Shown piece after piece: positions 10,311 to 46,118 of a stretch of DNA of 64,000 bases. The stretch is from positions 2,401,001 through 2,465,000 of the forward strand of contig BSQZ01000036.1 in the NCBI GenBank assembly GCA_033239005.1, read 5' to 3'. Under the pieces are notes generated by a model. The model saw nothing but the letters and a program-made list of their open reading frames with translations. It was not told the origin of the DNA and searched no databases. A program made the position numbers and the translations under genes. The DNA comes from Lamellibrachia satsuma (lineage: Eukaryota > Annelida > Polychaeta > Sabellida > Siboglinidae). The number at the start of each line of letters is the position of its first letter. Positions within the stretch are counted from its first letter, which is position 1.

Positions 10311-11335
10311 CATTAGTTTGGATGATAAGGAGTTCAACCAAGTGGATGGCTTTGTGTAACTTGGAGGAATGGTTAATGAGGATGAGCATTCAGAGGTAGA
10401 AATGCGATGCCGGATACAACAGGGAGTGAATTCTTGGGGTAAGGTAGAGGGCGTCATGTTGGACAGAAACATTTTGAAAAAGCTTAAAAGGAAAGTCCTG
10501 AGAGCTTGTGTTACACAAGCATGCCTTAATCTGTATCTGGAGACAGTGGCATTGACAGAACAACAACAGCAGCTGAAAGTTGGTTCTGATTTTGTCGAAT
10601 AACAGGAACAAAGAGGGTTGACGAAAGAAGAATGAACGACCTGAGGAAATATGTAATGCAACAAAACAGTTCAACAGGAAGATTGGTGAGAAGCAAGATG
10701 AAATGGCCAGGCCACATGGTAAGGATGGATGCAGACATACTAGTAAAGAGAGTGGAAGAGAAAGTTGAAAAAACATAAAGGATGCAAGAAAAGGGGAACG
10801 AACAGCTAAGATCGAAGGACTGCGTGAGGTGGGATATGAGAAGATCGGGGGAAGATGAAAGATGGAGAGGGAGCAGCCGATAGAAAAGTATAGAAAGATA
10901 AAACAGAAAGAGTGACTCGACAATATTTTACCTGAACCTAACCCATGAACATCAGTGAAAAAAGAGGAAAAGCACCGTTAGTTTGGTAAAAAAAAGTTTT
11001 GTTTAATAAATCCAATAATATGGTCAACATTTTCATAAGCAGTGTATAAATTGCTTATAAGAAAAAAAATTATTTCAATAGAATATTTGCTAAATATTTA
11101 CAAAATCAATCTCTCATATGTATCTCTGTTTGAGCAATATGCATTTTACCATATGGTTGTATTCATATAAACGACGTACTTTTCTTGACTACAGCATGCT
11201 GATAAAAATCCAATATCCTTTGACAAGAAGGATGTACAGTGAAAGTATAAATAAAAACATTAAACAAATCAATCTGGTTACCAAAACATAAGCCATTACT
11301 ACTCAGCGCAAATACTGATTGATTAGAACAACTGT
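10311..11335 (+). mobile_element. RT-remnant element, left-truncated copy at the array edge
   Basis: Starts abruptly in mid-element at 'cattagtttggatgataagg' and continues through the end of the decayed reverse-transcriptase frame (NEDEHSEVEMRCRIQQG, KMKWPGHMVRMDADIL) and the AT-rich 3' tail (10,930-11,335) containing AATAAA-like motifs. It corresponds to the second half of the element at 20,397-21,715, so it marks the left boundary of the 10.38-kb tandem array. Confidence 0.75.
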
Positions 11336-11492
11336 AAAAGTTAGTTTCTCAATCTAATGTGACATTCTCCCCTCCCCCACAATTCATTGTTACAGTTTTT
11401 GCAATGTCTGTTTCACTCATAATCCAATGAATTTGCAAGAGCACCATGAATGGGCTGCTTCCAAGGCGGTTTTGTCTACTTATGACACCAAC

Positions 11493-11598
11493 CTGTACCA
11501 ACACACAAAGTGGGGATAGGCAAGCACGATCCTATTGAAGTGACCTTTGATATTGTTCACTCTCGGTCCACCAAAATTGTTCCTGGCTGCCGCAGCAC
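11493..11598 (-). pseudogene. KCTD3/SHKBP1-like exon E1 (unit A)
   Basis: After acceptor cttttttgcag the 106-nt exon is open and reads GGPRVNNIKGHF then NRIVLAYPHFVCWYR before donor gttggt. It aligns with the first WD-type blade of KCTD3/SHKBP1 (DPRKV....GHHNWIVAAYAHFAVCYR). KCTD3 and SHKBP1 are BTB/WD-repeat proteins; SHKBP1 affects EGFR trafficking and KCTD3 modulates HCN channels. The BTB exons that should precede it were not identified in the array. If spliced directly to the PDZ2 exon at 9989 the frame would be lost (phase 2 into phase 1). Confidence 0.8.
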
Positions 11599-11616
11599 CT
11601 GCAAAAAGACCTAAAG

Positions 11617-11745
11617 TAAAGGCATGTTTATGTTTACACAGCACTGTATCCACTCCTTGGGATTGTTCAACGTGCTTAACAGTTCACTCCTTGGCTGACC
11701 TGTTCATTCCAACACCTTTTGTACTTATCTGGGAGTCTGACTTTG
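11617..11745 (-). mobile_element. SINE tail fragment (unit A)
   Basis: 'agtaaaggcatgtttatgtt' through 'gacctgttcattccaacacc' matches the tail region of the full SINE at 45,645-45,979, including the 'cctgttcattcca' block. It lies directly beside E1, as does a similar fragment at 60,476. Confidence 0.65.
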
Positions 11746-11841
11746 TAATGAGTTGGTTGTATTTAGTCAGTTCTGTGTCATAGCGTGCAACACCCAGAAC
11801 TGTCATGTTCCTGAGAACAAAAAGAAGAGTTGTGGTTGGAT

Positions 11842-13160
11842 ATGGGTTGTCGGAAGTTTTTAAAGTTAACATCGGTTAGAGGCAAGGAAATGACCCTTTA
11901 CTCTTTATCATGGTGGTGGCACTAATCAGGAGGAAGTTCAGCAAGAAGGATGTTCGCAGGAAGGGGATGTATGCAAAGGATCTGGCCATGATAGCAGACA
12001 AAAAACAAGAACTACAGGAAGTGTTGGAGCAATGGAAGGGGATGTTCAAGAAGCACGGACCGATAATGCGCCGGGAGAAGACAGAAGAGATGTGGGTTTG
12101 GCATCAGAGAGAGGACTTGAACATTAGTTTGGATGATAAGGAGTTCAACCAAGTGGATGGCTTTGTGTAACTTGGAGGAATGGTTAATGAGGATGAGCAT
12201 TCAGAGGTAGAAATGCGATGCCAGACACAAGAGGGAGCGAATGCTTGTGGAAAGGTAGAGGGAGTCATGTTGGACAGAAACATTTTGAAAAAGCTGAAAA
12301 GGAAAGTCCTGAGAGCTTGTGTTACACTAGCATGCCTTAATCTGTATCTGGAGACAGTGGCGTCGACAGAACAACAACAGCAGCGGAACGTTGGTTCTGG
12401 TTTAGTCGAATAACACGAACAAAGAGGGTTGACGAAAGAAAGATGAACGACCTGAGGAAATATGTGATGCAACAAAACAGTTCAACAGGAAAATTGGTGA
12501 AAAGCAACGTAAAATGGGCAGGCCACATGGTAAGCATGGATGCAGACATACTAGCAAAGAGAGTGGAAGAAAAAGGTGAAAAAACATCAAGGATGCAAGA
12601 AAAGGGGAACGAACAGCTAAGATCGAAGGACTGCGTGAGGTGGGATATGAGAAGATCGGGGGAAGATGAAAGATGGAGAGGAGGAAGATGAAAGATGGAG
12701 AGGGGGCAGCCGATAGAAAACTATGTAAAGAAAAAACAGAAAGAGTGAAACGACAATATTTTACCTGAACCTAACCCATGAACATCGGTGAAAAAAGAGG
12801 AAAAGCACCATTAGTTTGGTAAAAAAAAGTTATGTTTAATAAATCCAATAATATGGTCAACATTTTCATAAGCAGTGTATGAATTGCTTATGAGAAAAAA
12901 CATTATTTCAATAGAACATTTGCTAAATATTTACAAAATCAATCTCTCATATGTATCTTTGTTTGAGCAATATGCATTTTACCATATGGTTGTACTCATA
13001 TAAACGACGTACTTTTCTTGACTACAGCATGCTCATAAAAATCAAATATCCTTTGACAAGAAGGATGTTCAGTGAAAGTATAAATAAAAACATTAAACAA
13101 ATCAATCTGGTTACCAAAACATAAGCCATTACTACTCAGCGCAAATACTGATTTATTAGA
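11842..13160 (+). mobile_element. Decayed non-LTR RT element beta (unit A)
   Basis: The conceptual frame reads MYAKDLAMIADKKQELQEVL then KHGPIMRREKTEEMWV: the Y-A-D-D catalytic region of a non-LTR reverse transcriptase (here YAKD) and the following K-T box. After FNQVDGFV comes a TAA where F-V-Y-L-G is expected. Further on are SNVKWAGHMVSMDADILAKR and QLRSKDCVRWDMRRSGEDER, matching the typical C-terminal ..GH..RM....KR...R.RW.D.. motif. A conserved 400-bp AT-rich tail follows at 12,760-13,160. Several stops; inactive. Confidence 0.75.
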
Positions 13161-13164
13161 ACAA

Positions 13165-13612
13165 CTGTGAGCTCACTGTAAATCCAACACGCCGCTAACT
13201 TTGTCTATTGCCAGGGCGGCTTCGCGATAATCTCGCGCTAAGTTTGCAGTCAACTGTTGAAACACGTCGAAGACGACTGGGGATTGCGTCTCTACGTCGG
13301 TGATCGCGACGACGTCGGCGCCTCGAAAATAGGAGGCTTCGACAACGGCGACAATGTGGTCGTATGTTTGATGCGACAGTTCATCGACGACAGCGAACTC
13401 ATGACGACGGCGCTCGGCAGCATCAAACCGCTGCCCAAATACATATTTGTCTTGCTCGACGTCACCCAATCTTCATCCATTCGCCCACGTCTACAGCAAC
13501 TGCTCTTACAAGACTCTGCCTCCATCCAGGTCAAGTGAAGCACTGATGCACGACTCCGACGTCTCTTTGATGCGATACCAATGCTAGTTTCGTTCCAGGA
13601 CACACGTTAGAT
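13165..13612. other. GC-rich block with overlapping sense and antisense open frames (unit A)
   Basis: This is the most GC- and CpG-rich part of the unit. On + an open frame runs about 13,233-13,538 (HVEDDWGLRLYVGDRDDVGA ... KYIFVLLDVTQSSS). On - one runs 13,469-13,173 (GDVEQDKYVFGQRFDAAERR ... DVFQQLTANLARDYREA). I recognise neither. Both remain open in all four units. The + frame changes by conservative D/E, D/N and G/S replacements among the copies, so constraint cannot be decided by eye. No splice context was found. It could be a captured foreign fragment. Confidence 0.5.
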
Positions 13613-14040
13613 GATGTAAACATTATAGCAAACAATCAATCATCTTTGATATAGCATTCAACGCTCCCCATAAAAGACACCGCGTGCGACACAAGTGTTG
13701 ACTTTGTACCAGGATACACGTGTGTAACAAACACTGATACGCAGACACGCTTCCCTGCCGACGTTTAATAAAAGCCACATGCCGTGATATGAGCTGGTAT
13801 GCGCACTGAGCTATAGAGGCCTATGTTGCAACATTTGTTTTTGCGCGGTTTATTATTTTACTTTTCGTACTAGTGTTAGCAGTAAGATGCGCGCATGAGT
13901 AAGCTACAGCGTGGTGCGAACCATGGCCATATTAAATATTGCTAAACACTTGTACATGTTTGCATTAACAAACAAACGGCATATCTCCCTACCGCGCTGC
14001 CTCCTCTCCCTTCCTCGCTTCTTCTCTGACCCTTCTCCTT
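13613..14040. other. Noncoding (unit A)
   Basis: Moderately CpG-containing DNA leading into the SINE. A pyrimidine tract at 13,985-14,045 (cctcctctcccttcctcg) precedes the SINE head. No gene seen. Confidence 0.4.
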
Positions 14041-14044
14041 CTCT

Positions 14045-14340
14045 CCCATCGAATGGGGCGTGACAACGTTCCAGATAGAACGTCAGGCTCCCAGTCGTGA
14101 AAACCCTAGCTTGAACCGTCTTGCTGCCGTTTCGAAGCTTTGGCAATTTGTTTCACCTAACGTTGCCACAGCTCATTCGTTTGTATGAAATAGTATCTGG
14201 CTATATGCAGTGGTGATTATAGGTACGAATGGTCTTCGAGCAGTAACTGCAGCATGACTGAGTGCTTCCCAGAGAAGTCGAGATGGAGTTGGAATGAACA
14301 GGTGTGCTAGGGGTGAAGTGTAAAACACTTTGAACACTGA
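14045..14340 (+). mobile_element. tRNA-derived SINE, decayed (unit A)
   Basis: Aligns end to end with the complement of the SINE at 45,645-45,979: head 'ggggcgtgacaacgttcc', then 'tttcgaagctttggc', a central part with 'gctcattcgttt', and tail 'tggaatgaacaggtgtgcta'. The pol III boxes are degenerate compared with the younger copy. Confidence 0.7.
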
Positions 14341-15530
14341 ACGTACACTCACTGATGCTGATGTTGAGAAAATTGCTGTAAACAGAACGATTACGTATCC
14401 TCAATAGAACAACACGCATGTGTCGAAACAATTAGGATACCAGAATAATTGCGACATAGAAATTGCGCTTCTAAGTGAGGATTATAAAATCATTCAGGGC
14501 GTTGACAGGTGTCAAGGCGTGGTGCTGCAATAGACTATGTTATGCAAACAGGACAACGCCGTCCGAGCGCATGGACAATGCGTGTCGTAGTTCGTTGATT
14601 ACTTCCGCCAGCGCAGACAACAGACCACAATGGTTCATTCCTGTTTACCAGCCAGCATGCGGGGAGTTCTTGCATTTAGCGTGTCTTATATAGCAATCCA
14701 TGCGAAGTTGGTGATTCTTCTTCCAAAAATTGGTATACGGTGTACGGCCTACCATGACCGAAGAATGATCAATTGGAGAAATATGGAGGAGTGTGCAAGA
14801 TAGCATTTCGTGAGCTACATCCGTGTTGGAGTGCATGTTATCTGCTTCAACATACGTTGTATATCAATAGCACACGATGCCTGCCTCCTGTGGTGTTCTC
14901 TGTAAAAGCTGATCTCATCTAGATAGGTAGAAATGCATTGCGTTGACAGCCAGTCGGACGAAATTGGTGAAGAAAGAGATGATTCGAGACAGCTACTAAC
15001 AAAAGGAGCATTATAAACAGGGACTTTGTGACCTACCAGAATGCGGAAGGTTTGTATATAAACATTGTTTGGCTTTGTAGATAAATAATATCTATACTAC
15101 GGAGTACACATATTTGATATGGTTTTAATTCTGATACATATTTTATTCATTCTACAAACGATTGATCATTTCATATGGAGTTTTGATTAATGTATTGGGA
15201 CAGATTACTTATTAGTGACAACTATGTTTTTCTGCTTCTGATGCAACTCATGACTGTGTATTAGTCGCACGAAAATTTGGCTAGACTGTTGCTGGTAAGG
15301 AGACGAGACACTTTATATGCGTTTTGGCTTATTGTTGGCAAACGTAACAGTTAACGAAGTAACGGCGGTGGGAATTGCTAGATGCATATATAATAAACAG
15401 ACATACCAGTTATCACAACTGTTCGATGATACTATTGCCAATATAATAAACCTTTTCCACTTGGAGTGTGTTGTATTCCTAAGACAGGGTTTTGTAGGGT
15501 TGTTGATATCAATTACACGGCCAACGTTCT
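14341..15530. other. Unassigned sequence of the array unit
   Basis: Carries short open frames on + at 14,475-14,693 and 15,317-15,532 that recur in the other units, but no recognisable domain, clear splice structure or RNA gene was found. The second frame ends inside the antisense leader of the promoter-like cluster. Confidence 0.4.
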
Positions 15531-15535
15531 AGTAG

Positions 15536-15573
15536 ACGCCATCTTAGAGTGATCACTTCCGGCGCATGCGCAT
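15536..15573 (-). promoter_or_regulatory. Promoter-like YY1/ETS/NRF1 cluster with ATG (unit A)
   Basis: Read on the minus strand within 38 bp: an NRF1-type palindrome GCGCATGCGC (15,571-15,562), an ETS/GABP site CCGGAAGT (15,562-15,555), and AAGATGGCG (15,545-15,537), which is both a YY1-type element and an ATG in good context. This grouping is typical of metazoan housekeeping promoters. The frame opened by the ATG reads MASTRTLAV then stops, so it would need splicing early (a weak gtgtaa donor lies after TTGGCC). The KCTD3-like exon E1 lies about 4 kb away on the same strand, in the direction of transcription. Confidence 0.55.
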
Positions 15574-15599
15574 AATTTCACCACTAGATCTGCATAATT

Positions 15600-16430
15600 C
15601 AATATCAATAACATAGACTAGTAATATTATTTATGCATGTTATACACTTTGCAGCATTACAACATGAACTATGCCATATAAGAAACATTCTAATTAACTA
15701 AATTGTTTAATTAGTAGTTGTTATATCAGTTAAATGTAAAGTTAACCTGTTTCAAGAGTTCACACCACAAATTCAGCTAAATAGGTTTACCTACTATATA
15801 AACGGGTTGTCGTGTTGTCATAGGAGGTTACAAGCTCGACATATAGGGATTGTCAGTAGTTTGGCTGGAGAACTACAGGAAGGTCTGGGGGCCGACAAAT
15901 CTCTCCCCTGAGAGCTGCTCGATATGTAACCATAAGAGACCCGGTGACTGTGGATTGGTCTCTCCAGCGACCGATAGGAGGTGCAACCAAATAGCAGATA
16001 ATGCTAAGTGTCACTCACGTCATTGGACTCTTATTTTTTAAACAAAAGTACATCGATCATTACATATTCAGATTCAGGTTGTTATTCTCGATTCGCATTA
16101 GGTGGTCAATCGGCATCAGTTTTATTGTCATCGTAGCAAACGTCTGTCAATCCGTAATCAATTACATGTAAATTATTACGTTGCTGTCCTTCCTTGCATT
16201 TTAGTAAATCAATGCTTTCATTATATCACTCTACGTCACTCCCTAAACAAAAAGGCTATATAATATTAGTGTTTTATGGCACTCCAGCAAACATGCAAAT
16301 TTGTTCTCATCGAAGAACAGCCAGGCGACACTGTTAAGCAAATGTTTCCACACGTTTTGATTTTACTGTGCTTCTCTACATGCAATCTAAAGTCTGACAC
16401 ATAAGGAAACGTCTTGCAACATATTGTGCG
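15600..16430. other. Unassigned sequence of the array unit
   Basis: AT-rich. It contains a + open frame at 15,850-16,041 (VWLENYRKVWGPTNLS) present in all units, with no known domain. No gene supported. Confidence 0.4.
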
Positions 16431-16439
16431 CACGTAATC

Positions 16440-17060
16440 GATTCAAATAGACATGCAAAATTTACCCCACCAATAATAACTAACTCGGATTTACTTGCAT
16501 TTAACTTTAATGTGGTCTCTGTCATCCAATGGAAGATTTTGTGGAGACAATCCCTGAGCTAGTTTTGGAAGTGATTTGTATCTCATGTAGCCAAAATAGC
16601 ATAGGTCTGTGATTTATTAGCATACACTTGGTGATCCAAGTTGTGACGTTGGATAACTGAGCCAAGTAGAGTAGCGTAGAGAGTGAAACACCCTGAGGAA
16701 CATTACGAGAAGTAGGGAGCGTAGCTGAGAAATAATTAGCTATCTTCATTCTTTTGCATCTATCAGTTAAATATTATGAGAACCAGCTCTGTTCCAGATA
16801 TGCCACACCACATTGACACACTTTTAATAAGTTGTCCTGTGACCAATGCTATCAAATGCGGCAGATAGCTTCAGCAAGAAAATGGTCTCCTTCCATACAC
16901 TTCCTGGACCAACTACCCAGTGTGTAGATCCGCTCAAGTCTGGTCAATAACAGATTTAACACCTACACATGGTTCACTGAATGGTATTAATTCAGTCAAC
17001 ACTTGATCATTTGCTGTGTCGCCAGAACAGTCTGCATTGATTGTCCTTAAAAACTTCCAG
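16440..17060 (-). mobile_element. Decayed RT of a second non-LTR family (unit A)
   Basis: Read on minus, the pieces LLKLSAAFDSIGH, then NVPQGVSLSTLLYLAQLSNV and WMTETTLKLNASKSELVIIG occur in order across frames and stops. They match LLDLSAAFDTIDH, GVPQGSVLGPLLF and WM..N.LKLN..KTE..L.G of L2/CR1-type reverse transcriptases. The catalytic Y-A-D-D is not preserved. Opposite strand to the RT elements alpha and beta. Confidence 0.65.
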
Positions 17061-17307
17061 GAGAAACCATATGGCAATATCTTCATTATGTTGGACCGTC
17101 GACTGCAACGGTATTTTTTTTATTAATACAATAAGTTATAACATTTATATAAATTAAATTTAACAAAGGTAATAATAAATACATTTGTATGTGAGCGTTT
17201 TCACGTACAGGATACACTTTTGCCAAAATGAACTTTCCCACATAGTATTGAAATAATTAATGGTGTAATATTAATTCAGTCTAAATATATATTCCTTGCT
17301 CACTTAC

Positions 17308-17415
17308 CATATGCTTCTGGGAAAATCTCAGCTGATTGATGCACAACAACCAACTCACTTCTTCGTGGTGACGTACTACTCACGAGAGATGGAGTAAAGA
17401 GCTGACCCATTGTGT
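17308..17415 (-). pseudogene. Exon c (unit A), gene unassigned
   Basis: 108 nt, open: TMGQLFTPSLVSSTSPRRSE then LVVVHQSAEIFPEAYG, between acceptor atatcattgcag and donor gtaagt. Exon b ends in phase 0 while this exon needs one extra base, so b and c are not directly adjacent in a transcript. It lies downstream of E1-E5 on the same strand, so it may be part of the variable C-terminal tail of the KCTD3-like gene. Its end phase would also permit an in-frame join to the DLG PDZ2 exon at 9989. Confidence 0.5.
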
Positions 17416-17867
17416 CTGCAATGATATTAACAGATGTCGTCATTTCATCATCCCAAAAGCCAATAAATGAATGGGTCAAATTTTCTACAGTTTCTTTTAA
17501 TGCAGGCCATGTGAATATGTTACACATTTTTTTTACAAATATCTTGTTACACATAGGTGTAAGAAAACCTGTCTACTTAAATGCTTCCTTTTCTGTCTGA
17601 ATCAACCAATGGTTCCATTCCAAAAATATATATAATTCGACCAAACATTACATCTATATTACACATATGTTGAATACTAGTGGAATGATAGGATGAACAT
17701 TTGAAGCAGTGTGCCGACGACCATAAAAGGATCAACATTTGCAGCAGTAAAAATACCCCAAAAAGCCATATTGGTGCCCCCTGGGGCAAGACAGCTACCC
17801 ATATACCTGGGGCAGTTCGGTCTACAACTCCTTCCCGCGTGTTTTTAATGCAAGAGCAAGAGAGCTC

Positions 17868-18245
17868 TTTACACTTCTAGTAAGCTGTAATGTCCGTGAA
17901 AGACTAACCGGGTTGCGAGTGCAAAAATCATTTTACACTACAAGTCAGCTGTTATATCTGTATAGAGAGTCACTGGTATGTGAGTGCAATAATTATTTGA
18001 CACTTTGAGTCAGTTGTATGGCCTACATAAAGACTCACTGGTATGTGAGTGGAAGAATAATTTTTCAATTCGAGTCAGCTGTAATGTCGGAATAAAGACT
18101 GACTTTGCTGTGAGTACAATAATCAAGTAAGCTGTAATATCTGTGTAAAGACTGACTGGGCTGTGAGTACAACAATCACTTTACACTTCAAGTAAGCTGT
18201 AATGTCTGCGTAAAGACTGACTTGGCTGTGAGTGCAATAATCAGC
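17868..18245. repeat. 65-bp VNTR beside exon b, six copies (unit A)
   Basis: Copies of 'cttcaagtaagctgtaatgt' followed by 'ctgcgtaaagactgac' and 'tgagtgcaataatca'. Six copies here, one of them shortened; the same array has five copies in unit C and two in unit D. Confidence 0.85.
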
Positions 18246-18262
18246 ATGAGCCAAGAACTTAC

Positions 18263-18435
18263 GCTGTCGATGTTCTCATCCTTGTGTGGTTTGTCCCAGG
18301 TGACACCGACGCCGTCCTGTCGTGACGTCTTTACTGCTGGTACGTCAATTGTTGTGTAATCGAAAGGCTCTGTGTCGTCCACTGATGTAGTCATGTTGTG
18401 TACTGACTTTTGTGACTGAGGTTTGATGGTGGCAC
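18263..18435 (-). pseudogene. Exon b (unit A), gene unassigned
   Basis: 173 nt between acceptor catcattccag and donor gtaagt, open: ATIKPQSQKSVHNMTTSVDD then TEPFDYTTIDVPAVKTS and VTWDKPHKDENIDS. Hydrophilic, no known domain. Nearly identical in units C and D. Probably encodes a disordered cytosolic tail of the same gene as E1-E5, by position only. Confidence 0.5.
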
Positions 18436-18439
18436 CTGG

Positions 18440-19130
18440 AATGATGACATCAAGTCTATACAGGCAATACATATCAGTCAGTGTTGTAATTTGATCATTA
18501 TAATATTTTACAGAAATTACAAAATAACTTAATTTAGATTTTTTTTTTAACTGACAGAAAGCTGCTTGACCATTTAAAACAATTTATTTTCCAGAACAAA
18601 GAACGATGCTTTGGCAGTTCATTTAGAAGCATTTCCTTGTAATAAACGACCATTTGTCTAAAAGAATTGAGAATGGTTGTACTAGTAAGTTAATATTGAA
18701 GAATTTCCCTGACAGGCAAACAGATTTGAGAGAACGGAGAAAGGATGCACTGGCTGTTAAATGTAGTAAAATGCATATTGCCTCTCTCTCGCTGTCAGCT
18801 GTGGTTGCGACTATGACTGCTCACCTAGTTCGCATTAAGTCCTCTCTAGATTGGTCTTTCATCGGAAACTAAGTACAACTGTTTGGCGTCTATATTTTAT
18901 TTTCTGCAAGTTTCCCTTTACTATGTCTTTACTATGACTAAGTTTTTGGCGACCGCTGTCTCTAGTACCTTCTGACAGTTGTGAGTGCTGTAAAAAGCTA
19001 CTAAGCAACTAAGTACAACTGATCGGATCCACAAAAAAGGGGGTGTCCAGTTTTCCAATAAAAAAAGTTATTACGTATCTTAATATATAATCTAATTTAC
19101 TGAAATATATAATTCTATATCTCTATGGAG
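18440..19130. other. Intron-like sequence between exon b and E5 (unit A)
   Basis: No exon seen. The part at about 19,025-19,460 (around E5) recurs in diverged form at 62,510-63,040, showing that the right-hand KCTD3-like copy shares intron as well as exon sequence. Confidence 0.5.
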
Positions 19131-19132
19131 AT

Positions 19133-19247
19133 AAACTTGAATGATGCCAAGGCCACTGAGCCGGGCTGTGTGATCGTTTATGTGTGCTGGTCATGCCAAG
19201 GAATCAGGTCACGTTCCACGAATGTACATGGTTGTACTCAGAGAACA
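19133..19247 (-). pseudogene. KCTD3/SHKBP1-like exon E5 (unit A), with nonsense codon
   Basis: The acceptor gtgtttgcag gives V-F-S-E-Y-N-H-V-H-S-W-N-V-T, then TGA at 19,204-19,206, then FLGMTS. After a short insertion it continues TQPGSVALASFKFISIE. The family sequence is [20 protein letters not shown], continuing [18 protein letters not shown], so the TGA replaces Arg. An insertion flanked by ACACA(G) repeats disrupts the ST-QPG junction. The acceptor phase fits E4. No canonical donor remains at the 3' end. Confidence 0.82.
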
Positions 19248-19551
19248 CTGCAAACACAGCAGTGAGCTACAGTGATTCACTTTCAATATTTCAAGGCCCT
19301 GATACTGGTAAGCCGCGTCATATCAAACTAAAGCTGATATGATCATAATCAATGCTTCAACTTGGATTACTTGAAAAGAAAACCAAGCTTTTACTTGTAT
19401 ATTTTATAGAACTTTGGATGTCACAGTATATGTAAATGATGGCCCACTAAAAATCAAACCATAAATGTAACATGGTCATCATCATGAAACAAAGCTTTTC
19501 CAGGTATATTTGAATATTTTCCAAAGAAATATACTTGAGAATTGGACCTAC

Positions 19552-19721
19552 CAGAGACGCAATGCTTCGTTGAAAACATCACCCTGGTGATGGGATTGGT
19601 GTGTACAGAGAACGTTTTGAAGAGCTGTGGCCCTGTCCAACTGACTCTGGTTGCTGCAGAATCATTTGCGCAGCTCCCGAAATTGTCCAGTAGGCTATCT
19701 CAATACATTTCCCACTCAGGG
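19552..19721 (-). pseudogene. KCTD3/SHKBP1-like exon E4 (unit A), frameshifted
   Basis: Reads ALSGKCIEIAYWTISGAAQM, then ILQQPESVG; after a one-base shift it continues GPQLFKTFSVHTNPITRVMF and STKHCVS. This corresponds to [20 protein letters not shown]...[20 protein letters not shown] of KCTD3/SHKBP1. The acceptor gttttcag fits E3 in phase; the donor is gtaggt. Confidence 0.85.
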
Positions 19722-19914
19722 CTGAAAACAGTCGAGCAATGGACAATACCAAAACAGCCCTGCTTCAAAGGAGCAACTTGCACATTAGCGTAACAAATAT
19801 AATCAACACATCTAAATGAGACGTTAGTCATAATTGTAGTTGCTATGAATTAGTCAGAATTCATAACGTTTAGTTCTAACATTCTAGTCAAATGTAGCAA
19901 GCAGGGAGACTCAC

Positions 19915-20004: not shown

Positions 20005-20009
20005 CTGTA

Positions 20010-28630: not shown

Positions 28631-28633
28631 AAC

Positions 28634-37118: not shown

Positions 37119-37275
37119 AAAAGTTAGTTTCTCAATCTAATGTGACATTCTCCCCTCCCCCACAATTCATTGTTACAGTTTTTGCAATGTCTGTTTCACT
37201 CATAATCCAATGAATTTGCAAGAGCACCATAAATGGCCTGCTTCCAAGGCGGTTATGTCTACTTATGAAACCAAC

Positions 37276-37381
37276 CTGTACCAACACACAAAGTGGGGAT
37301 AGGCAAGCCCGATCCGATAGAAGTGACCCTTGATATTGTTCACTCTCGGTCCACCAAAATTGTTCCTGGCTGCCGCAGCAC
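37276..37381 (-). pseudogene. KCTD3/SHKBP1-like exon E1 (unit D)
   Basis: Open exon as in unit A. It precedes E3-E4-E5-b-c of unit C in transcript order. Confidence 0.8.
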
Positions 37382-37399
37382 CTGTAAAAAGACCTAAAG

Positions 37400-37528
37400 T
37401 AAAGGCATGTTTATGTTTACACAGCACTGTATCCACTCATTGGGATTGTTCAACGTGCTTAACAGTTCACTCCCTGGCTGACCTGTTCATTCCAACACAT
37501 TTTGTACTTATCTGGGAGTCTGACTTTA
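37400..37528 (-). mobile_element. SINE tail fragment (unit D)
   Basis: Copy of the fragment at 11,617. Confidence 0.6.
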
Positions 37529-37619
37529 AATGAGTTGGTTGTATTTAGTCAGTTCTGTGTCATGGCGTGCAACACCCAGAACTGTCATGTTCCTGAGAAC
37601 AAAAAGAAGAGTTGTGGTT

Positions 37620-38930
37620 GGATATGGGTTATCGGAAGAGTTTAAAGTTAACATCGGTTAGAGGCAAGGAATTGACCCTTTACTCTGTATCATGGTGGTG
37701 GCACTAATCAGCAGGAAGTTCAGCAAGAAGGATGTTCTCAGGAAGGGGATGTATGCAAACGATCTGGCCATGATAGCAGACAAAAACAAGAACTAAAGGA
37801 AGTGTTGGAGCAATGGAAGGGGATGTTCAAGAAGCACGGACCGATAATGAGCCGGGAGAAGACAGAAGAGATGTGGGTTTGACATCAGAGAGATGACTTG
37901 AACATTAGTTTGGATGATAAGGAGTTCAACCAAGTGGATGGCTTTGTGTAACTTGGAGGAATGGTTAATGAGGATGAGCATTCAGAGGTAGAAATGCGAT
38001 GCCGGATACAACAGGGAGCGAATGCTTGGGGAAAGGTAGAGGGAGTCATGTTGGACAGAAACATTTTGAAAAAGCTGAAAAGGAAAGTCCTGAGAGCTGT
38101 GTGTTACAAAAGCATGCCTTAATCTGTATCTGGAGACAGTGGCGTTGACAGAACAACAGCAGCTGAAAGTTGGTTCTGGTTTTGTCGAATAACACGAACA
38201 AAGAGGGTTGACGAAAGAAGGATGAACGACCTGAGGAAGTATGTGATGCAAGAAAACAGTTCAACAGGAAGATTGGTGAGAAGCAAGATGAAATGGCCAG
38301 GCCACATGGTAAGGATGGATGCAGACATACTAGTAAAGAGAGTGGAAGAGAAAGGTGAAAAAACATCAAGGATGCAAGAAAAGGGGAACGAACAGCTAAG
38401 ATCGAAGGACTGCGTGAGGTGGGATATGAGAAGATCGGGGGAAGATGAAAGATGGAGAGGAGTAAGATGAAAGATGGAGAGGGGGCAGCCGATAGAAAAC
38501 TATGTAAAGAAAAACAGAAAGAGTGAAACGACAATATTTTACCTGAACTTAACCCATGAACATCAGTGATAAAAGAGGAAAAGCACCGTTAGTTTGGTAA
38601 AAAAAGTTATGTTTAATAAATCCAATAATATGGTCAACATTTTCATAAGCAGTGTATAAATTGCTTATGAGAAAAAACATTATTTCAATAGAATATTTGC
38701 TAAATATTTACAAAATCAATCTCTCATATGTATCTTTGTTTGAGCAATATGCATTTTACCATATGGTTGTACTCATATAAACGACGTACTTTTCTTGACT
38801 ACAGCATGCTCATAAAAAATCAAATATCCTTTGACAAGAAGGATGTTCAGTGAAAGTATAAATAAAAACATTAAACAAATCAATCTGGTTACCAAAACAT
38901 AAGCCATTACTACTCAGCGCAAATACTGAT
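37620..38930 (+). mobile_element. Decayed RT element beta (unit D)
   Basis: Additional damage compared with the other copies: a lost A in 'gacaaaaacaagaactaaag' and indels near 38,095. The shared stops are present. Confidence 0.72.
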
Positions 38931-38943
38931 TTGTTAGAACAAC

Positions 38944-39390
38944 TGTGAGCTCACTGTAAATCCAACACGCCGCTAACTTTGTCTATTGCCAGGGCGGCTT
39001 CGCGATAATCTCGCGCTAAGTTTGCAGTCAACTGTTGAAACACGTCGAAGACGAGTGGGGATTGCGTCTCTACGTCAGTGATCGCGACGACGTCGGCGCC
39101 TCGAAAATAGGAGGCTTCGACAACGGCGACAATGTGGTCGTATGTTTGATGCGACAGTTCATCGACGACAGCGAACTCATGACGACGGCGCTCGGCAGCA
39201 TCAAACCGCTGCCCAAATACATATTTGTCTTGCTCGACGTCACCCAATCTTCATCCATTCGCCCACGTCTACAGCAACTGCTCTTACAAGACTTTGCCTC
39301 CATCCAGGTCAAGTGAAGCACTGATGCACGACTCCGACGTCTCTTTGATGCGATACCAATGCTAGTTTCGTTCCAGGACACACGTTAGAT
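38944..39390. other. GC-rich block (unit D)
   Basis: Resembles unit A at most variable sites (ggcgac, cgacgac) but unit B at gacgag and gactttgcc, a mosaic pattern. Both frames are open. Confidence 0.5.
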
Positions 39391-39829
39391 GATGTAAACA
39401 TTATAGCAAACAATCAATCATCTTTGATATAGCATTCAACGCTCCCCATCAAAGACACCGCGTGCGACACAAGTGTGGACTTTGTACCAGGATACACGTG
39501 TGTAACAAACACTGATACGCAGACACGCTTCCCTGCCGACGTTTAATAAAAGCCACATGCCGTGATATGAGCTGGTATGCGCATTGAGCTATAGAGGCCT
39601 ATGTTGAAACATTTGTTTTTGCGCGGTTTATTATTTTACTTTTCGTACTAGTGTTAGCAGTAAGATGCGCGCATGAGTAAGCTACAGCGTGGTGCGAACC
39701 ATGGCCATATTAAATATTGCTAAACACTTGTACATGTCTGCATTAACAAACAAACGGCATATCTCCCTCCCGCGCTGCCTCCTCTCCCTTCCTCGCTTCT
39801 TCTCTGACCCTTCTCCTTCTCTCCCATCG

Positions 39830-40105
39830 AATGGGGCGTGACAACGTTCCAGATAGAACGTCAGGCTCCAAGTCGTGAAAACCCTAGCTTGAACCGTCTT
39901 GCTGCCGTTTCGAAGCTTTGGCAATTTGTTTCACCGAACGTTGCCACAGCTCATTCGTTTGTATGAATGAGTATCTGGCTATATGCAGTGGTGATTATAC
40001 GTACGAATGGTCTTCGAGCAGTAACTGCAGCATGACTGAGTGCTTCCCAGAGAAGCCGAGAGGGAGTTGGAATGAACAGGTGTGCTAGGGGTGTAAAACA
40101 CTTTG
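39830..40105 (+). mobile_element. SINE copy (unit D)
   Basis: Shortened in the tail; followed by a unit-specific insertion ('ttagtactattattttttgg' near 40,130). Confidence 0.62.
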
Positions 40106-41280
40106 AACACTGAACGTACACTAACTCATTAGTACTATTATTTTTTGGTGTAACCATGTTGAGAAAATTGCTGTAAACAGAACGATTACGTATCCTCAAT
40201 AGAACAACACGCATGTGTCGATACAATTAGGATACCAGAATAATTGCGACATAGAAATTGCGCTTCTAAGTGAGGATTACAAAATCATTCAGGGCGTTGA
40301 CAGGTGTCAAGGCGTGGTGCTGCAATAGATTATGTTATGCAAACAGGACAACGCCGTCCGAGCGCATGGACAATGCGTGTCGTAGTTCGTTGATTACTTC
40401 CGCCAGCACAGACAACAGACCACAATGGTTCATTCCTGTTTACCATGCGAAGTTGGTGATTCTTCTTCCAAAAATTGGTATACAGTGTACGGCCTACCAT
40501 GACCGAAGAATGATCAATTGGAGAAATATGGAGGAGTGTGCAAGATAGCATTTCGTGAGCTACATCCGTGTTGGAGTGCATGTTATCTGCTTCAACATAC
40601 GTTGTATATCAATAGCACACGCTGCGTGCTTCCGGTGGTGTTCTCTGTAAAAGCTGATCTCATCTAGATAGGTAGAAATGCATTGCGTTGACAGCCAGTC
40701 GGACGAAATTGGTGAAGAAAGAGATGATTCGAGACAGCTACTAACAAAAGGAGCATTATAAACAGGGACTTTGTGACCTACCAGAATGCGGAAGGTTTGT
40801 GTATAAACATTGTTTGGCTTTGTAGATAAATAATATCTATACTACGGAGTACACATATTTGATATGGTTTTAATTCTGATACATATTTTATTCATTCTAC
40901 AAACGATTGATCATTTCATATGGAGTTTTGATTAATGTATTGGGACAGATTACTTATTAGTGACAACTATGTTTTTCTGCTTCTGATGCAACTCATGACT
41001 GTGTATTAGTCGCACGAAAATTTGGCTAGACTGTTGCTGGCAAGGAGACGAGACACTTTCTATGCGTTTTGGCTTATTGTTGGCTAACGTAACAGTTAAC
41101 AAAGTAACGGCGGTGGGAATTGCTAGATGCATATATAATAAACAGACATACCAGTTATCACAACTGTTCGATGATACTATTGCCAATATAATAAACCTTT
41201 TCCACTTGGAGTGTGTTGTATTCCTAAGACAGGGTTTTGTAGGGTTGTTGATATCAATTACACGGCCAACGTTCTAGTAG

Positions 41281-41318
41281 ACGCCATCTTAGAGTGATCA
41301 CTTCCGGCGCATGCGCAT
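41281..41318 (-). promoter_or_regulatory. Promoter-like YY1/ETS/NRF1 cluster (unit D)
   Basis: All three motifs intact; ATG at 41,285-41,287. Confidence 0.5.
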
Positions 41319-42492
41319 AATTTTACCACTAGATCTGCATAATTCAATATCAATAACATAGACTAGTAATATTATTTATGCATGTTATACACTTTGCAGC
41401 ATTACAACATGAACTATGCCATATAAGAAACATTCTAATTAACTAAATTGTTTAATTAGTAGTTGTTATATCAGTTAAATGTAAAATTAACCTGTTTCAA
41501 GAGTTCACACCACAAATTCAGCTAAATAGGTTTACCTACTATATAAACGGGTTGTCGTGTTGTCATAGGAGGTTACAAGCTCGATATATAGGGATTGTCA
41601 GTAGTTTGGCTGGAGAACTACAGGAAGGTCTGGGGGCCGACAAATCTCTCCCCTGAGAGCTGCTCGATATGTAACCATAAGAGACCCAGTGACTGTGGAT
41701 TGGTCTCTCCAGCGACCGATAGGAGGTGCAACCAAATAGCAGATAATGCTAAGTGTCACTCACGTCATTGGACTCTTATTTTTTAAACAAAAGTACATCG
41801 ATCATTACATATTCAGATTCAGGTTATTATTCTCGATTCGCATTAGTTGGTCAATGGGCATCAGTTTTATTGTCATCGTAGCAAACGTCTGTCAATCCGT
41901 AATCAATTACATGTAAATTATTACGTTGATGTCCTTCCTTGCATTTTAGTAAATCAATGCTTTCATTATATCACTCTACGTCACTCCCTAAACAAAAAGG
42001 CTATATAATATTAGTGTTTTATGGCACTCCAGCAAACATACAAATTTGTTCTCATCGAAGAACAGCCAGGCGACACTGTTCAGCTAATGCTTTCCACACG
42101 TTTTGATTTTACTGTGCTTCTCTACATGCAATCTAAAGTCTGACACATAAGGAAACGTCTTGCAACATATTGTGCGCACCTAATCGATTCAAATAGACAT
42201 GCAAAATTTACCCCACCAATAATAACTAACCAGGATTTACTTGCATTTAACTTTAATGTGGTCTCTGTCATCCAATGGAAGATTTTGTGGAGACAATCCC
42301 TGAGCTAGTTTTGGAAGTGATTTGTATCTCATGTAGCCAAAATAGCATAGGTATGTGATTTATTAGCATACACTTGGTGATCCAAGTTGTGACGTTGGAT
42401 AACTGAGCCAAGTAGAGTAGCGTAGAGAGTGAAACACCCTGAGGAACATTTCGTGAAGTAGGGAGCATAGCTGAGAAACAATTCGCTATCTT

Positions 42493-43644
42493 ACATACAT
42501 ACATACATATCCTCTTCGGTCTTCAGGCAAAATCTGCCTATGTACCGCTCTTAGTTAGTCTTAGTGTGGCTTTGTAGTCATATTTGACTGCCTGGTTTCG
42601 CCAGTATTTGTCTAGTCGATTTTTAAGCGTATTTACTGACGGTGCAGTGACGACGGTGTCCGGAAGTGAATTCCAAATATTAATGACTCTCTGGCTAAAG
42701 AAATGCCTCCTTAATTCCCGTTTACTTCGGTCCTTGAACAACTTTAGAGAATGACCCCGTGTGCCTTCGTACAAGTCTTTGTTAAATATATCGTGCGAAA
42801 AGGTAAAAATGCCATGCAAGTATTTATACACATCAATAATATCTCCTCGTAAACGACGATAGGTCAGTGTTGGTAAATTTAATGCCTTTAATCTAGATTC
42901 GTAATCTAAATGTCTCAGTACTGGGACCATCCTACTAGCTCTTCTCTGGACAGCCTCCAGAGCATCAATATCATGCTGGTACTGTGGTGACCAAACTACC
43001 ACTCCGTATTCCAAAGTAGGACGGACTAGTCCCTTATATAAATGTAGAAAGGTTGTCCTGTCCAAGTATTGATATGTTCGTCGTATTACACCCAGTAATC
43101 TATTTGTTTTTGACACTGCCTGCTGTACCTGTTGTGTAAATTTTAACTGGTCATCAACTAGGATGCCCAGGTCTTTCTCTACATGGCTACACTCCAGAGG
43201 ATTTGCACCTGTTTCTGTTGTCAAAGTATAAGTAAATTCTGGGTGCCCATGTCCAATTCTTAGAACTTTGCATTTATCTGGGTGAAATTTTAACTGCCAC
43301 TTTTCAGCCCAGTCTTGTAATCTGTCTATGTCTTTCTGTAGGTTTATACAATCTTGCCTCGTTGAAGTTTTGTGATATATTTTTGTATCGTCTGCGAAAA
43401 TCTTCATGTCACATGTTATAACATTTGTTAAATCATTGATATATAGTATAAAAAGAATAGGTCCAAGGACACTGCCCTGTGGTACCCCACTTACTACTTC
43501 CGACCACGAAGATGCTGCTCCATTTACTAATACACAGTGTTTGCGACAGGTGAGAAATGTTTCAATCCATTTAAGAAGTTTTCCCTTTATTCCGTATCCT
43601 TTTAACTTTGCTAGCAGTCTCTGATGTGGTACTGAGTCAAAAGC
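42493..43644 (-). mobile_element. 5'-truncated CR1/Jockey-group LINE insertion
   Basis: Present only in unit D. The empty site in unit C reads 'gctatcttcattctt' without interruption; here it is split, with CTT on both sides as a short target duplication. The 3' end (minus strand) is a (GTAT)n tail of about four repeats, typical of LINEs that end in microsatellites. The 5' end is truncated inside the reverse transcriptase. Confidence 0.88.
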
Positions 43645-43650
43645 CTTCAT
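42538..43650 (-). CDS. Reverse transcriptase C-terminal part of the young LINE
   Basis: A 370-codon open frame without stops. The first Met-Lys come from flanking DNA and the element begins at AFDSVPHQRLL. Recognisable are RT motif A (KAFDSVPH, catalytic Asp), VSGVPQGSVLGPILFILYIN (motif B) and FADDTKIY (motif C, catalytic Asp-Asp). Then come the thumb/C-terminal features WAEKWQLKFHPDKCKVL, LEYGVVVWSPQ and LEAVQRRASRMV, with SLPDTVVTAPSVNTLKNRLD near the end. It would copy its RNA at a nicked target. The N-terminal endonuclease and palm start are missing, so this copy is not autonomous. The clean frame indicates a recent insertion. Confidence 0.9.
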   Translation of the reverse strand: MKAFDSVPHQRLLAKLKGYGIKGKLLKWIETFLTCRKHCVLVNGAASSWSEVVSGVPQGSVLGPILFILYINDLTNVITCDMKIFADDTKIYHKTSTRQDCINLQKDIDRLQDWAEKWQLKFHPDKCKVLRIGHGHPEFTYTLTTETGANPLECSHVEKDLGILVDDQLKFTQQVQQAVSKTNRLLGVIRRTYQYLDRTTFLHLYKGLVRPTLEYGVVVWSPQYQHDIDALEAVQRRASRMVPVLRHLDYESRLKALNLPTLTYRRLRGDIIDVYKYLHGIFTFSHDIFNKDLYEGTRGHSLKLFKDRSKRELRRHFFSQRVINIWNSLPDTVVTAPSVNTLKNRLDKYWRNQAVKYDYKATLRLTKSGT

Positions 43651-44207
43651 TCTTTTGCGTCTATCAGTTAAATATTATGATAACCAGCTCTGTTCCAGAT
43701 ATGCCACACCACATTGACACACTTTTAATAAGTTGTCCTGTGACCAATGGTATCAAATGCGGCAGATAGCTTCAGCAAGAAAATGGTCTCCTTCCATACA
43801 CTTCCTGGACCCACTACCCAGTGTGTAGATCCGCTCAAGTCTGGTCAATAACAGATTTAACACCTACACATGGTTCACTGAATGGTATTAATTCAGTCAA
43901 CACTTGATCATTTGCTGTGTCGCCAGAACAGTCTGCATTGATTGTCCTTAAACACTTCCAGGAGAAACCATATGGCAATATCTTCATTATGTTGGACCGT
44001 CGACTGCAACGGTATTTTTTTAATAATACAATAAGTTATAACATTTATATAAATTAAATTTAACAAAGGTAATAATAAATACATTTGTATCTGGGCGTTT
44101 TCACGTACAGGGTACACTTTTGCCAAAATGAACTTTCCCGCATAGTATTGAAATAATTAATGGTGTAATATTAATTCAGTCTAAATATATATTCCTTGCT
44201 CACTTAC

Positions 44208-44315
44208 CATATGCTTCTGGGAAAATCTCAGCTGATTGATGCACAACAACCAACTCACTTCTTCGTGGTGACGTACTACTCACGAGAGATGGAGTAAAGA
44301 GCTGACCCATTGTGT
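44208..44315 (-). pseudogene. Exon c (unit D)
   Basis: Open, splice sites intact; one Trp-Asp-Asp-Glu region change lies outside the exon. Confidence 0.5.
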
Positions 44316-44769
44316 CTGCAATGATATTAACAGATGTCGTCATTTCATCATCCCAAAATCCAATAAATGAATGGGTCAAATTTTCTACAGTTTCTTTTAA
44401 TGCAGGCCATGTGAATATGTTAAACATTTTTTTTACAAATATCTTGTTACACATAGGTGTAAGAAAACCTGTCTACTTAAATGCTTCCTTTTCTGTCTGA
44501 ATCAACCAATGGTTCCATTCCAAAAATATATATAATTCGACCAAACATTACATCTATATTACACATCTGTTGAATACTAGTGAAATGATAGGATGAACAT
44601 TTGAAGCAGTGTGCCGACGACCATAAAGGGATCAACATTTGCAGCAGTAAAAATACCCCAAAAAGCCATCTTGGTGCCCCTTGGGGCAAGACAGCTACCC
44701 ATATACCTGGGGCAGTTCGGTCTACAACTCCTTCCCGCGTGTTTTTAATGCAAGAGCAAGAGAGCTCTT

Positions 44770-44895
44770 TACACTTCAAGTAAGCTGTAATATATGTGTA
44801 AAGACTGACTGGGCTGTGAGTACAACAATCACTTTACACTTCAAGTAAGCTGTAATGTCTGCGTAAAGACTGACTTGGCTCTGAGTGCAATAATT
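44770..44895. repeat. 65-bp VNTR, two copies (unit D)
   Basis: Only two copies of the unit seen at 17,868 and 33,327. Confidence 0.85.
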
Positions 44896-44915
44896 AGCAT
44901 GAGTCAAAAACGTAC

Positions 44916-45088
44916 GCTGTCGATGTTCTCATCCTTGTGTGGTTTGTCCCAGGTGACACCGACGCCGTCCTGTCGTGACGTCTTTACTGCTGGTACGTCA
45001 ATTGTTGTGTAATCGAATGGCTCTGTGTCGTCCACTGATGTAGTCATGTTGTGTACTGACTTTTGTGACTGAGGTTTGATGGTGGCAC
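44916..45088 (-). pseudogene. Exon b (unit D)
   Basis: Same 173-nt exon. The donor has changed from gtaagt to gtacgt. Confidence 0.5.
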
Positions 45089-45181
45089 CTGGAATGATGA
45101 CATCAAGTATATACAGGCAATACATATCAGTCAGTGTTGTAGTTTGATCATTATAATAGTTTACAGAAATTACAAAATAAA

Positions 45182-46118
45182 TTATCTGGGAGTCTGACTT
45201 ATCTGGGAGTCTGACTTTGTAATGAGTTGGTTGTATTTAGTCAGTTCTGTGTCATGGCGTGCAACACCCATAACTGTCATGTTCCTGAGAACAAAAACAA
45301 GAGTTGTGGTTGGATATGGGTTGTCGGAAGAGTTTAAAGTTAACATCGGTTAGAGGCAAGGAAATGACCCTTTACTCTTTATCATGGTGGTGGCACTAAT
45401 CAGCAGGAAGATCAGCATGAAGGATGTTCTCAGGAAGGGGATGTATGCAAACGATCTGGCCATGATAGCAGACAAAAAACAAGAACTACAGGAAGTGTTG
45501 GAGCAATGGAAGGGGATGTTCAAGAAGCACGGACCGATAATGAGCCGGGAGAAGACAGAAGAGATGTGTGTTTGACATCAGAGAGAGGATTTGAACATTA
45601 GTTTGGATGATGAGGAGTTCAACCAAGTGGATGGCTTTGTGTAAAAAGTAAAGGTATGTTCTTATATAGCGCGGTATCCGGTCCATAGGACTGCTCAAAG
45701 CGCTTTACACTTCACACCCTGGCAGACCTGTTCATTCCAAAGCCATCTCAACTTCTTTGGGAAGTATTCAGCCACGCTGCAATTGCTGCGCGAAGGCTAT
45801 TCGTTCACATATCCACCACTGTCTGTATTGCCAGGTACTCATTTATACAGCTGAGTGAACTGTGGCAACGTGGTGTGATCAAACTTGCCAAAGGTTCGAA
45901 GCGACCGCAGTGGGATTTGAAACCGGGTTCTCTCGACTGAGAGTCCGGCCTTCTAACCGGTATGCTATCGCACCCCTTGGTAACTTGGAGAAATGGTTAA
46001 TGAGGATGAGCATTCAGAGGTAGAAATGCAATGCCGGATACAACAGGGAGCGAATGCTCGGGGAAAGGTAGAGGGAGTCATGTTGGACAGAAACATTTTG
46101 AAAAATCTGAAAAGGAAA
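45182..46118 (+). mobile_element. RT element fragment at the right end of the array
   Basis: YANDLAMIADKKQELQEVLE with the shared stops. It is interrupted by the SINE at 45,645 and ends abruptly at about 46,118 within 'aatctgaaaaggaaagt'. This is the right boundary of the array. Confidence 0.75.
45645..45979 (-). mobile_element. tRNA-derived SINE, well preserved
   Basis: Inserted into the RT remnant at the in-frame TAA, with GTAA repeated on both sides (45,641-45,644 and 45,980-45,983). On minus the head starts GGGGTGCGATAGCATACCGG with B box GGTTTCAAATCCC. The central part contains CAGCTGTATAAATGAGTACC, resembling the conserved central domain of widespread metazoan SINEs. The tail end has AGCGCTTTGAGCAGTCC and GCGCTATATAAGAACATACC. 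It is the best reference copy for the decayed copies in each unit. Confidence 0.85.

What the first reader, a model, noticed from the sequence alone, without database searches (positions are those of the whole stretch)
10311..46118. A 36-kb tandem array built from a broken KCTD3/SHKBP1-like gene
Four units with a 10.38-kb period repeat the exon series E1-E3-E4-E5-b-c of one gene together with its promoter-like cluster and introns. E4 carries the same frameshift and E5 the same TGA in units A and C, so the copies were amplified after the gene had died. Amplifying an inactive locus with its promoter is unusual. It may reflect recombination between the RT elements rather than selection.
Basis: partly seen in the sequence, partly recalled or inferred. 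Interest (0 to 1): 0.8.

Follow-up and report, generated by a model that had tools for sequence, protein, structure and literature searches.

The report
Genome-wide macrosatellite carrying broken gene
The repeated block in this window is one small array of a ten-kilobase-scale repeat found on at least 24 contigs of this animal genome, and its fullest units carry a broken, intron-containing piece of a KCTD3-like gene that has a better-preserved copy elsewhere.

Summary
The array is real, but it is not a local oddity. Window 10307 to about 46606 is one array of a composite macrosatellite, [(R-SP)n-R-BODY-TAIL]: R is a 1.33-kb reverse-transcriptase remnant, SP a 0.5-kb spacer, BODY 5.36 kb, TAIL 1.86 kb. 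In the same 735-Mb genome, searches with R, TAIL and BODY each reached the 40-copy scoring limit (1785, 609, 620 candidates), on 24 contigs together. The KCTD3/SHKBP1-like exons are real, on the minus strand, but sit only in TAIL, so in 2 of the window's 4 units; the proposed first exon is not supported. A single-base frameshift is in 9 of 9, and a TGA in 8 of 8, satellite copies compared, so the fragment was dead before the copies spread. A copy open over five exon blocks lies at C19. A second KCTD3-bearing family (about 85% identical to TAIL) is also tandem, mostly at 8-10-kb spacing. BODY copies on different contigs differ by 0.3-2.8% in a star-like tree. Best reading: a genomic gene fragment became part of a macrosatellite that changes by unequal exchange and spread recently between chromosomes. 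The spreading route and any function are unproven.

The parts
10307..20393 (+). Unit 1: R (10307-11335, its first ~279 bp missing), SP 11336-11838, R 11839-13168, BODY 13169-18531, TAIL 18532-20393
20394..27404 (+). Unit 2: R 20394-21715, SP 21716-22218, R 22219-23547, BODY 23548-27404 (cut); no TAIL
27405..35794 (+). Unit 3: R from its base ~100 (27405-28636), BODY 28637-33932, TAIL 33933-35794
35795..45184 (+). Unit 4: R 35795-37118, SP, R 37621-38946, BODY 38947-45184 interrupted by an RT insertion; no TAIL
45197..46606 (+). Partial fifth unit: SP from ~388, R 1-332, SINE-like insertion, R 329-469, then stretch X (46121-46606); the block up to R469 recurs on C26 at 97.9% over 1226 bp, and X matches C26 and C17 at 94.6-98.4%
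11839..13168 (+). R module: 1.33-kb reverse-transcriptase remnant (RVT_1 model 127-192, E 0.0013, 19 bits, below the Pfam cut-off of 29.6)
13169..14068 (+). CpG-rich start of BODY (GC 49%, CpG observed/expected 1.30)
17868..18243 (+). 65-bp minisatellite inside BODY (also 33321-33644 and 44767-44894)
19907..20041 (-). KCTD3-like exon aa ~329-382 in unit 1; lacks 27 bp relative to the C19 copy, as do the 2 other satellite and 4 D copies aligned
19553..19725 (-). KCTD3-like exon aa 379-436 in unit 1, with the frameshift shared by 9 of 9 satellite copies
19121..19257 (-). KCTD3-like exon aa 434-474 in unit 1, with the shared TGA and an insertion and a deletion seen only in the window units
34522..35443 (-). 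The same three exons in unit 3 (35443-35309, 35127-34955, 34659-34522)
42493..43644 (-). Retroelement insertion with RT reading frame 42541-43674, in unit 4 only
45645..45979 (.). SINE-like insertion in R; the same insertion is in a C26 unit
62669..63858 (-). Separate degraded KCTD3-like copy outside the array (exon pieces 63858-63739 and 62842-62738); two stretches match the C19 gene at 82.7% and 88.5%

Best explanation
The finding is one 36-kb array of a composite macrosatellite. Its unit holds a reverse-transcriptase remnant with a spacer (SP seen 0 to 6 times between BODY modules), a 5.36-kb BODY with a CpG-rich start and no protein family found, and, in its fuller form, a TAIL built on an intron-containing fragment of a KCTD3-like gene. 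Shown: the module structure; the spread over at least 24 contigs; lesions common to the copies compared; a copy open over five exon blocks elsewhere; a second tandem family with the same gene fragment. Inferred: (i) a 1.2-1.3-kb genomic fragment of the gene was copied at the DNA level, since introns are kept, and decayed; (ii) it ended up next to R and BODY and the combination became tandem; (iii) unequal exchange at R-SP and between units changes copy number; (iv) ectopic exchange between arrays, or re-insertion of circular copies, carried units between chromosomes recently. No coding function is expected.
For: Self-comparison. Own-genome searches: R 40 scored of 1785 candidates, TAIL 40 of 609, BODY 40 of 620, all at 98-100%; together 24 contigs and 29 clusters. 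Fetched loci on C144, C36 end, C17, C26 and C31 show the same modules with variable R-SP number. Star-like BODY tree of 14 copies from six loci, 0.3-2.8% apart, between-contig distances as low as within-contig ones. Frameshift in 9 of 9 and TGA in 8 of 8 satellite copies; frameshift absent from the C19 gene and from 4 of 4 D copies. TAIL is 78-88% identical to the C19 gene in exons and introns alike (one satellite copy tabulated by segment). Variant junctions recur on other contigs: BODY joined to SP388 on C144 and C26, and the SINE-in-R block on C26 at 97.9% over 1226 bp.
Against: The spreading route is not shown: no read data, no cytology, no circular DNA. Copy numbers are first-look candidates, not counted copies. 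Only 5 of the 24 contigs were read beyond 200-base stubs for this family. The left-edge R differs by about 5% from the first R of units 2 and 4, which differ by 0.6% from each other, so the array is not a simple head-to-tail copying of unit 1. A mobile element with ill-defined ends is not excluded. The D family's KCTD3 fragments at many places could mean that the fragment moves by other means.
Confidence: 0.85

Rival explanations
1. The unit is a non-autonomous mobile element that captured a KCTD3 gene fragment (as Helitrons or Mutator-like elements do), and the tandem arrays are secondary.
For: KCTD3-bearing copies are scattered over many contigs in two related families; a Mutator-like transposase frame lies at the right edge (46496-47383, E 2e-9), and stretch X, which runs into it, recurs inside arrays on C17 and C26.
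Against: No transposase above Pfam's cut-off was found in BODY or R; TAIL was not scanned, and the six-frame scan is insensitive (it missed a real PDZ exon). Array edges fall at different module positions in the loci read (R 279 and X in the window, SP 139 at the C36 end), so no fixed ends were seen. The five other loci read are arrays; possible single copies were not read.
Confidence: 0.2
2. A strictly local duplication of one dead KCTD3-like gene with its promoter, driven by recombination between RT elements.
For: Units 1 and 2 group together in the tree (support 0.994). Units 1 and 3 share a 14/15-bp insertion and a deletion of about 79 bp not seen in the 6 other full TAIL copies aligned; the match of 38 of 38 non-window copies is broken at that deletion site.
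Against: At least 24 contigs carry the family; unit 4 does not group with units 1-3, and unit 3 is closer to the C36-end copy than to unit 2. Local growth explains part of this array, not its origin.
Confidence: 0.04
3. An assembly artefact (collapsed or duplicated contig ends).
For: 20 of 27 clusters with a usable distance lie within 100 kb of a contig end (14 of 21 on contigs of known length), where assemblies are weakest.
Against: The window array is 2.4 Mb inside a 6.6-Mb contig; its units differ by 0.7-1.6% in BODY and carry private insertions (RT in unit 4 only), so they are not one unit copied by the assembler. No reads were seen.
Confidence: 0.03
4. The arrays are kept by selection, for example as small-RNA sources with homology to the KCTD3-like gene, like Suppressor of Stellate in flies.
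For: Tandem, gene-derived, carries RT remnants; CpG-rich start of BODY. Variability in BODY is uneven, 0.18-1.52% per 200 columns in the 20 windows printed before the script stopped with an error, lowest around columns 1800-2600; not tested against chance.
Against: Only about 80% identity to the gene; no expression data.
Confidence: 0.05

Closest known systems
Human macrosatellites (D4Z4, RS447, TAF11-Like, SST1; PMC3018141, passages seen)
   Same: Kilobase-scale head-to-tail units, some holding a gene-derived frame, pieces of transposable elements, or a CpG island
   Different: [quoted passage not shown] this one is on at least 24 contigs, has a nested variable subrepeat, and its gene piece is broken in every copy compared
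Composite satellite monomers from 'TE graveyards' (PMC12628747, abstract part and passages seen)
   Same: A tandem unit patched together from degraded repeat remnants
   Different: There the pieces are transposable elements; here the unit also holds exons and introns of a host gene and is about ten kilobases long
Stellate / Suppressor of Stellate of Drosophila (PMC7874207, seen in a search listing only; details recalled)
   Same: Gene-derived tandem repeats with transposon sequence
   Different: No small-RNA or expression data here; this family is on many contigs
KCTD3 / SHKBP1 genes
   Same: Exons aa ~329-486 align in order with introns kept
   Different: Fragment only, frameshifted and with a stop

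Membership tests
Macrosatellite | Repeat unit of several kilobases, head to tail in one orientation | tested here: met
Macrosatellite | Tends to sit on one or two chromosomes (PMC3018141, passage) | tested here: not met
   24 contigs among the scored hits; contigs are not chromosomes, but several are over 5 Mb; the source words this as a tendency, not a rule
Macrosatellite | Copy number differs between individuals | not testable with these tools
   one assembly only
Composite satellite from TE remnants | Unit contains stretches like different transposable elements | tested here: met
   weak RT remnant in R; 202-bp repeat in SP also outside the array; piece of BODY 75% like the SINE-like insertion at 45692-45976
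KCTD3/SHKBP1 | Exon homology in the right order, introns placed between | tested here: met
   KCTD3 query recalled, checked against named KCTD3 proteins
KCTD3/SHKBP1 | BTB domain and open reading frame | tested here: not met
   best in-array match to aa 1-328 is E=0.14, or 0.022 under laxer settings, both in the repeat called 'E1' and outside the BTB part; frameshift and TGA
Processed (retro)pseudogene | Introns absent | tested here: not met
   introns kept and alignable to the C19 gene
Transposon with captured gene (Helitron, Mutator-like) | Fixed termini and target-site duplication | tested here: inconclusive
Transposon with captured gene (Helitron, Mutator-like) | Encoded transposase or Rep/helicase in the unit | tested here: inconclusive
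   none above cut-off in BODY and R, TAIL not scanned, scan insensitive; only needed for an autonomous element
Suppressor-of-Stellate-like piRNA locus | Gonadal small RNAs from the array acting on the gene | not testable with these tools
   no RNA data

The most novel reading that the evidence does not exclude
A fragment of a broken host gene has become a structural satellite of this species' chromosomes: the two related KCTD3-bearing families may make up centromeric, subtelomeric or other heterochromatic blocks on most chromosomes, so that a gene piece with exons and introns serves as bulk chromosome DNA.
Probability: 0.2. Interest if true: 0.75.

Novelty: new variant of a known kind. Interest (0 to 1): 0.5.

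Why it matters
It shows how an ordinary gene fragment can be turned into genome-wide tandem DNA. A parent-like gene, a related family (D) and the satellite are all in one assembly, so the steps (copying, decay, tandemisation, spread) can be ordered by shared lesions. It also warns annotators: of 79 KCTD3 matches listed in this genome, 74 are neither the C19 gene nor the BTB match on C5, and those looked at are repeat, not gene family.

Tried and rejected
Pfam over six frames of window 23500-33500 (BODY and R; TAIL not included) gave nothing above its cut-offs (weak: Flp_N E 0.15, DASH_Spc34 E 0.0017, RVT_1 E 0.047); the same kind of scan missed a real PDZ exon, so negatives there are weak. Rfam at gathering thresholds and ARAGORN found no RNA gene in the window, which argues against an RNA-gene array. 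No runs of four or more TTAGGG- or TTAGG-type repeats were found in the regions searched, so a subtelomeric position is neither shown nor excluded. The protein search with the broken exons found nothing (529 candidates, none at E<=0.01), probably because of length limits and lesions. A PDB search with one BODY frame found nothing. The idea that 'E1' is an exon was dropped (E=0.14, 0.022; dispersed repeat). Papers: KCTD3 + SHKBP1 + pseudogene, 0 papers; the other searches gave comparisons but no report of this repeat in the listings and passages seen. Not answered: the 5' exons (aa 1-318) of the C19 gene, the DLG parent, and genome-wide copies of the right-edge stretch 45900-46500.
Full report
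What is in the window. Self-BLAST shows a tandem array from 10307 to about 46120. The long unit-to-unit matches are 96-99% identical by BLAST, except unit 1 v unit 4 at 95.7%. It resolves into four modules: R (1.33 kb), SP (503 bp), BODY (5.36 kb, 13169-18531) and TAIL (1.86 kb, 18532-20393). Unit 1 is R-SP-R-BODY-TAIL with the first R cut; unit 2 ends in mid-BODY at 27404; unit 3 starts about 99 bp inside R at 27405 and has BODY and TAIL; unit 4 is R-SP-R-BODY with a 1.15-kb RT insertion (42493-43644); a partial fifth unit follows. The same R point recurs at spacings of 10.38, 5.09 and 10.32 kb. BODY distances without gaps (first 3.5 kb) are 0.78% (units 1-2), 0.67% (2-3), 0.86% (3-4) and 1.59% (1-4). 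The left-edge R is about 5% from the first R of units 2 and 4, which are 0.6% apart.

The gene piece. tblastn with recalled human KCTD3 and SHKBP1 finds three exon blocks on the minus strand in TAIL of unit 1 (20041-19907, 19725-19553, 19257-19121) and unit 3 (35443-35309, 35127-34955, 34659-34522). The recalled KCTD3 is sound: its best listed database hits are named mammalian KCTD3 proteins at 96% identity (1582 proteins at E<=1e-20 among the 7993 candidates scored, best 120 listed). Units 2 and 4 have no TAIL and no such exons. The proposed 'E1' scored E=0.14, or 0.022 with laxer settings, and lies in a 202-bp repeat also at 60350-60540.

Not local. The assembly that holds the window was searchable (735 Mb, 279 contigs; window = C36:2401001-2465000). 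R gave 40 scored copies of 1785 candidates, TAIL 40 of 609, BODY 40 of 620; 40 is the scoring limit, so these are lower bounds, and candidates are not counted copies. Together they lie on 24 contigs in 29 clusters. Distances to contig ends: 20 of 27 clusters are within 100 kb of an end; 2 clusters on contigs of unknown length were dropped, while 6 on such contigs were counted because they are near the start. On contigs of known length it is 14 of 21. About 7.6% would be expected by length. Arrays therefore often lie where the assembly stops, as satellites do; this does not tell centromere from chromosome end.

Structure elsewhere. I read 50 kb of C144, 39 kb of the C36 end, 40 kb of C17, 30 kb of C26 and 10 kb of C31. 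All five carry the modules. The 80 kb read beside the window on C36 (50 kb right, 30 kb left) holds no full module, only two short BODY-like pieces at about 70%. SP occurs 0 to 6 times between BODY modules. A second unit type joins BODY directly to SP388 without TAIL, in the window, on C144 and on C26. The window's last block, with a SINE-like insertion inside R, recurs on C26 at 97.9% over 1226 bp, and the stretch after it (46121-46606) also recurs on C26 (94.7-98.4%) and C17 (94.6-95.6%). So the repeat ends near 46606 here, and rearranged variants, not only whole units, have spread.

Age and relations. A tree of 14 BODY copies from six loci is star-like, with distances of 0.3-2.8%; window unit 3 is nearer to the C36-end copy (0.4%) than to unit 2 (0.7%), and unit 4 does not group with units 1-3, though most inner branches have low support. 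For TAIL, the eight full copies differ by 1.0-2.2%, within and between contigs alike; a ninth, internally rearranged copy on C17 was 7.3-8.5% off, probably because of its rearrangement. Spread between contigs is about as recent as growth within them.

Dead before spread. The single-base frameshift in the exon for aa 379-436 is in 9 of 9 satellite copies and absent from the C19 gene and 4 of 4 D copies. The TGA is in 8 of 8 satellite copies that still have the exon; the ninth lacks the exon. One of the D copies (C2) also has a TGA at that place, so that change may have happened twice. Units 1 and 3 alone have a further 14/15-bp insertion and a deletion of about 79 bp (against 6 other full copies), and 38 of 38 non-window copies have a match broken at the deletion site: these two units share a local ancestor.

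Parent and second family. A copy open over five exon blocks, aa 341-566, lies at C19:8347861-8350633; the one TGA that one search reports there falls where the match runs past the exon end (my reading). Its 5' part could not be searched, so 'intact' is likely but not shown. One search scored 76 of 1022 candidates and listed 79 matches: 4 in the C19 gene, 1 BTB match on C5, and 74 others, mostly the exon for aa 379-442, at 43-70% identity, many with stops and many open. Four of these loci were read (L046-L049; family D): 91-97% like each other, 77-82% like the gene and 84-90% like TAIL, in introns as well as exons. The 4 D and 3 satellite copies aligned lack the same 27 bp relative to the gene, so they probably descend from one damaged fragment. 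D is also tandem: neighbours 8.4-10 kb apart on C6, C47, C13, C189, C82, C7 and C33, with 13-14 kb as well on C13 (40 of 760 candidates scored). On C65 a D fragment is followed by one slightly nearer the satellite type (91.2% v 88.6-89.7%).

How it most likely works. Shown: structure, spread, shared lesions, a better-preserved copy. Inferred: DNA-level copying of a gene piece (introns kept, so not via mRNA); decay; linkage to R and BODY; unequal exchange through R-SP and whole units for local copy number; inter-array exchange or circular intermediates for spread. The junctions at 27404/27405 and 45184/45197 share about 2 and 3-5 bases by eye and look like end joining rather than R-to-R exchange. 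No gene function is needed. The CpG-rich start of BODY recalls the CpG island of the human SST1 macrosatellite (PMC3018141, passages seen) and could drive transcription; untested.

Known relatives. By unit size and arrangement it is a macrosatellite; unlike the human ones described in PMC3018141 it is not confined to one or two places. By composition it resembles composite satellites from transposon graveyards (PMC12628747, passages seen), with a host-gene piece added. It holds a fragment of a KCTD3/SHKBP1-family gene and is not itself such a gene. I file it as a new variant of a known kind.

Noticed in passing
window 4667-9993, minus strand, and C36:2400103-2400951 (L021): Exons like DLG/PSD-95 (PDZ2, half of PDZ3 with an in-frame stop, SH3, and guanylate-kinase pieces, one with a stop): apparently a DLG pseudogene whose last recognised exon ends about 300 bp from the array. 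No PDZ1 exon was found in the window with a recalled DLG4 query.
   Followed up: partly
window 46496-47383 +: Mutator-like transposase frame (PF20700, E 2e-9) starting in the stretch X that recurs inside satellite arrays on C17 and C26.
   Followed up: partly
window 48981-49463 -: His-Me homing-endonuclease zinc-binding region (PF05551, E 1.4e-8) near the Mutator-like frame.
   Followed up: no
window 62669-63858 -: Separate KCTD3-like pseudogene copy, closer to the C19 gene than the satellite is; the exon part for aa ~297-317 lies by a 77-bp tandem repeat (63655-63798).
   Followed up: partly
C6, C47, C13, C189, C82, C7, C33: Second KCTD3-bearing tandem family (D), spacing mostly 8.4-10 kb; many listed copies keep a 92-aa frame open over the exon, which may only reflect age.
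   Followed up: partly
C51:3756861-3887503: Satellite copies lie in two clusters of opposite strand, as if an array were inverted about its middle.
   Followed up: no
window 54225-54399: 18-bp tandem repeat inside an open frame encoding an EHDHSDEHDHSV-type repeat on the minus strand.
   Followed up: no
window 58362-59536: 274-bp tandem repeat, 4.3 copies.
   Followed up: no
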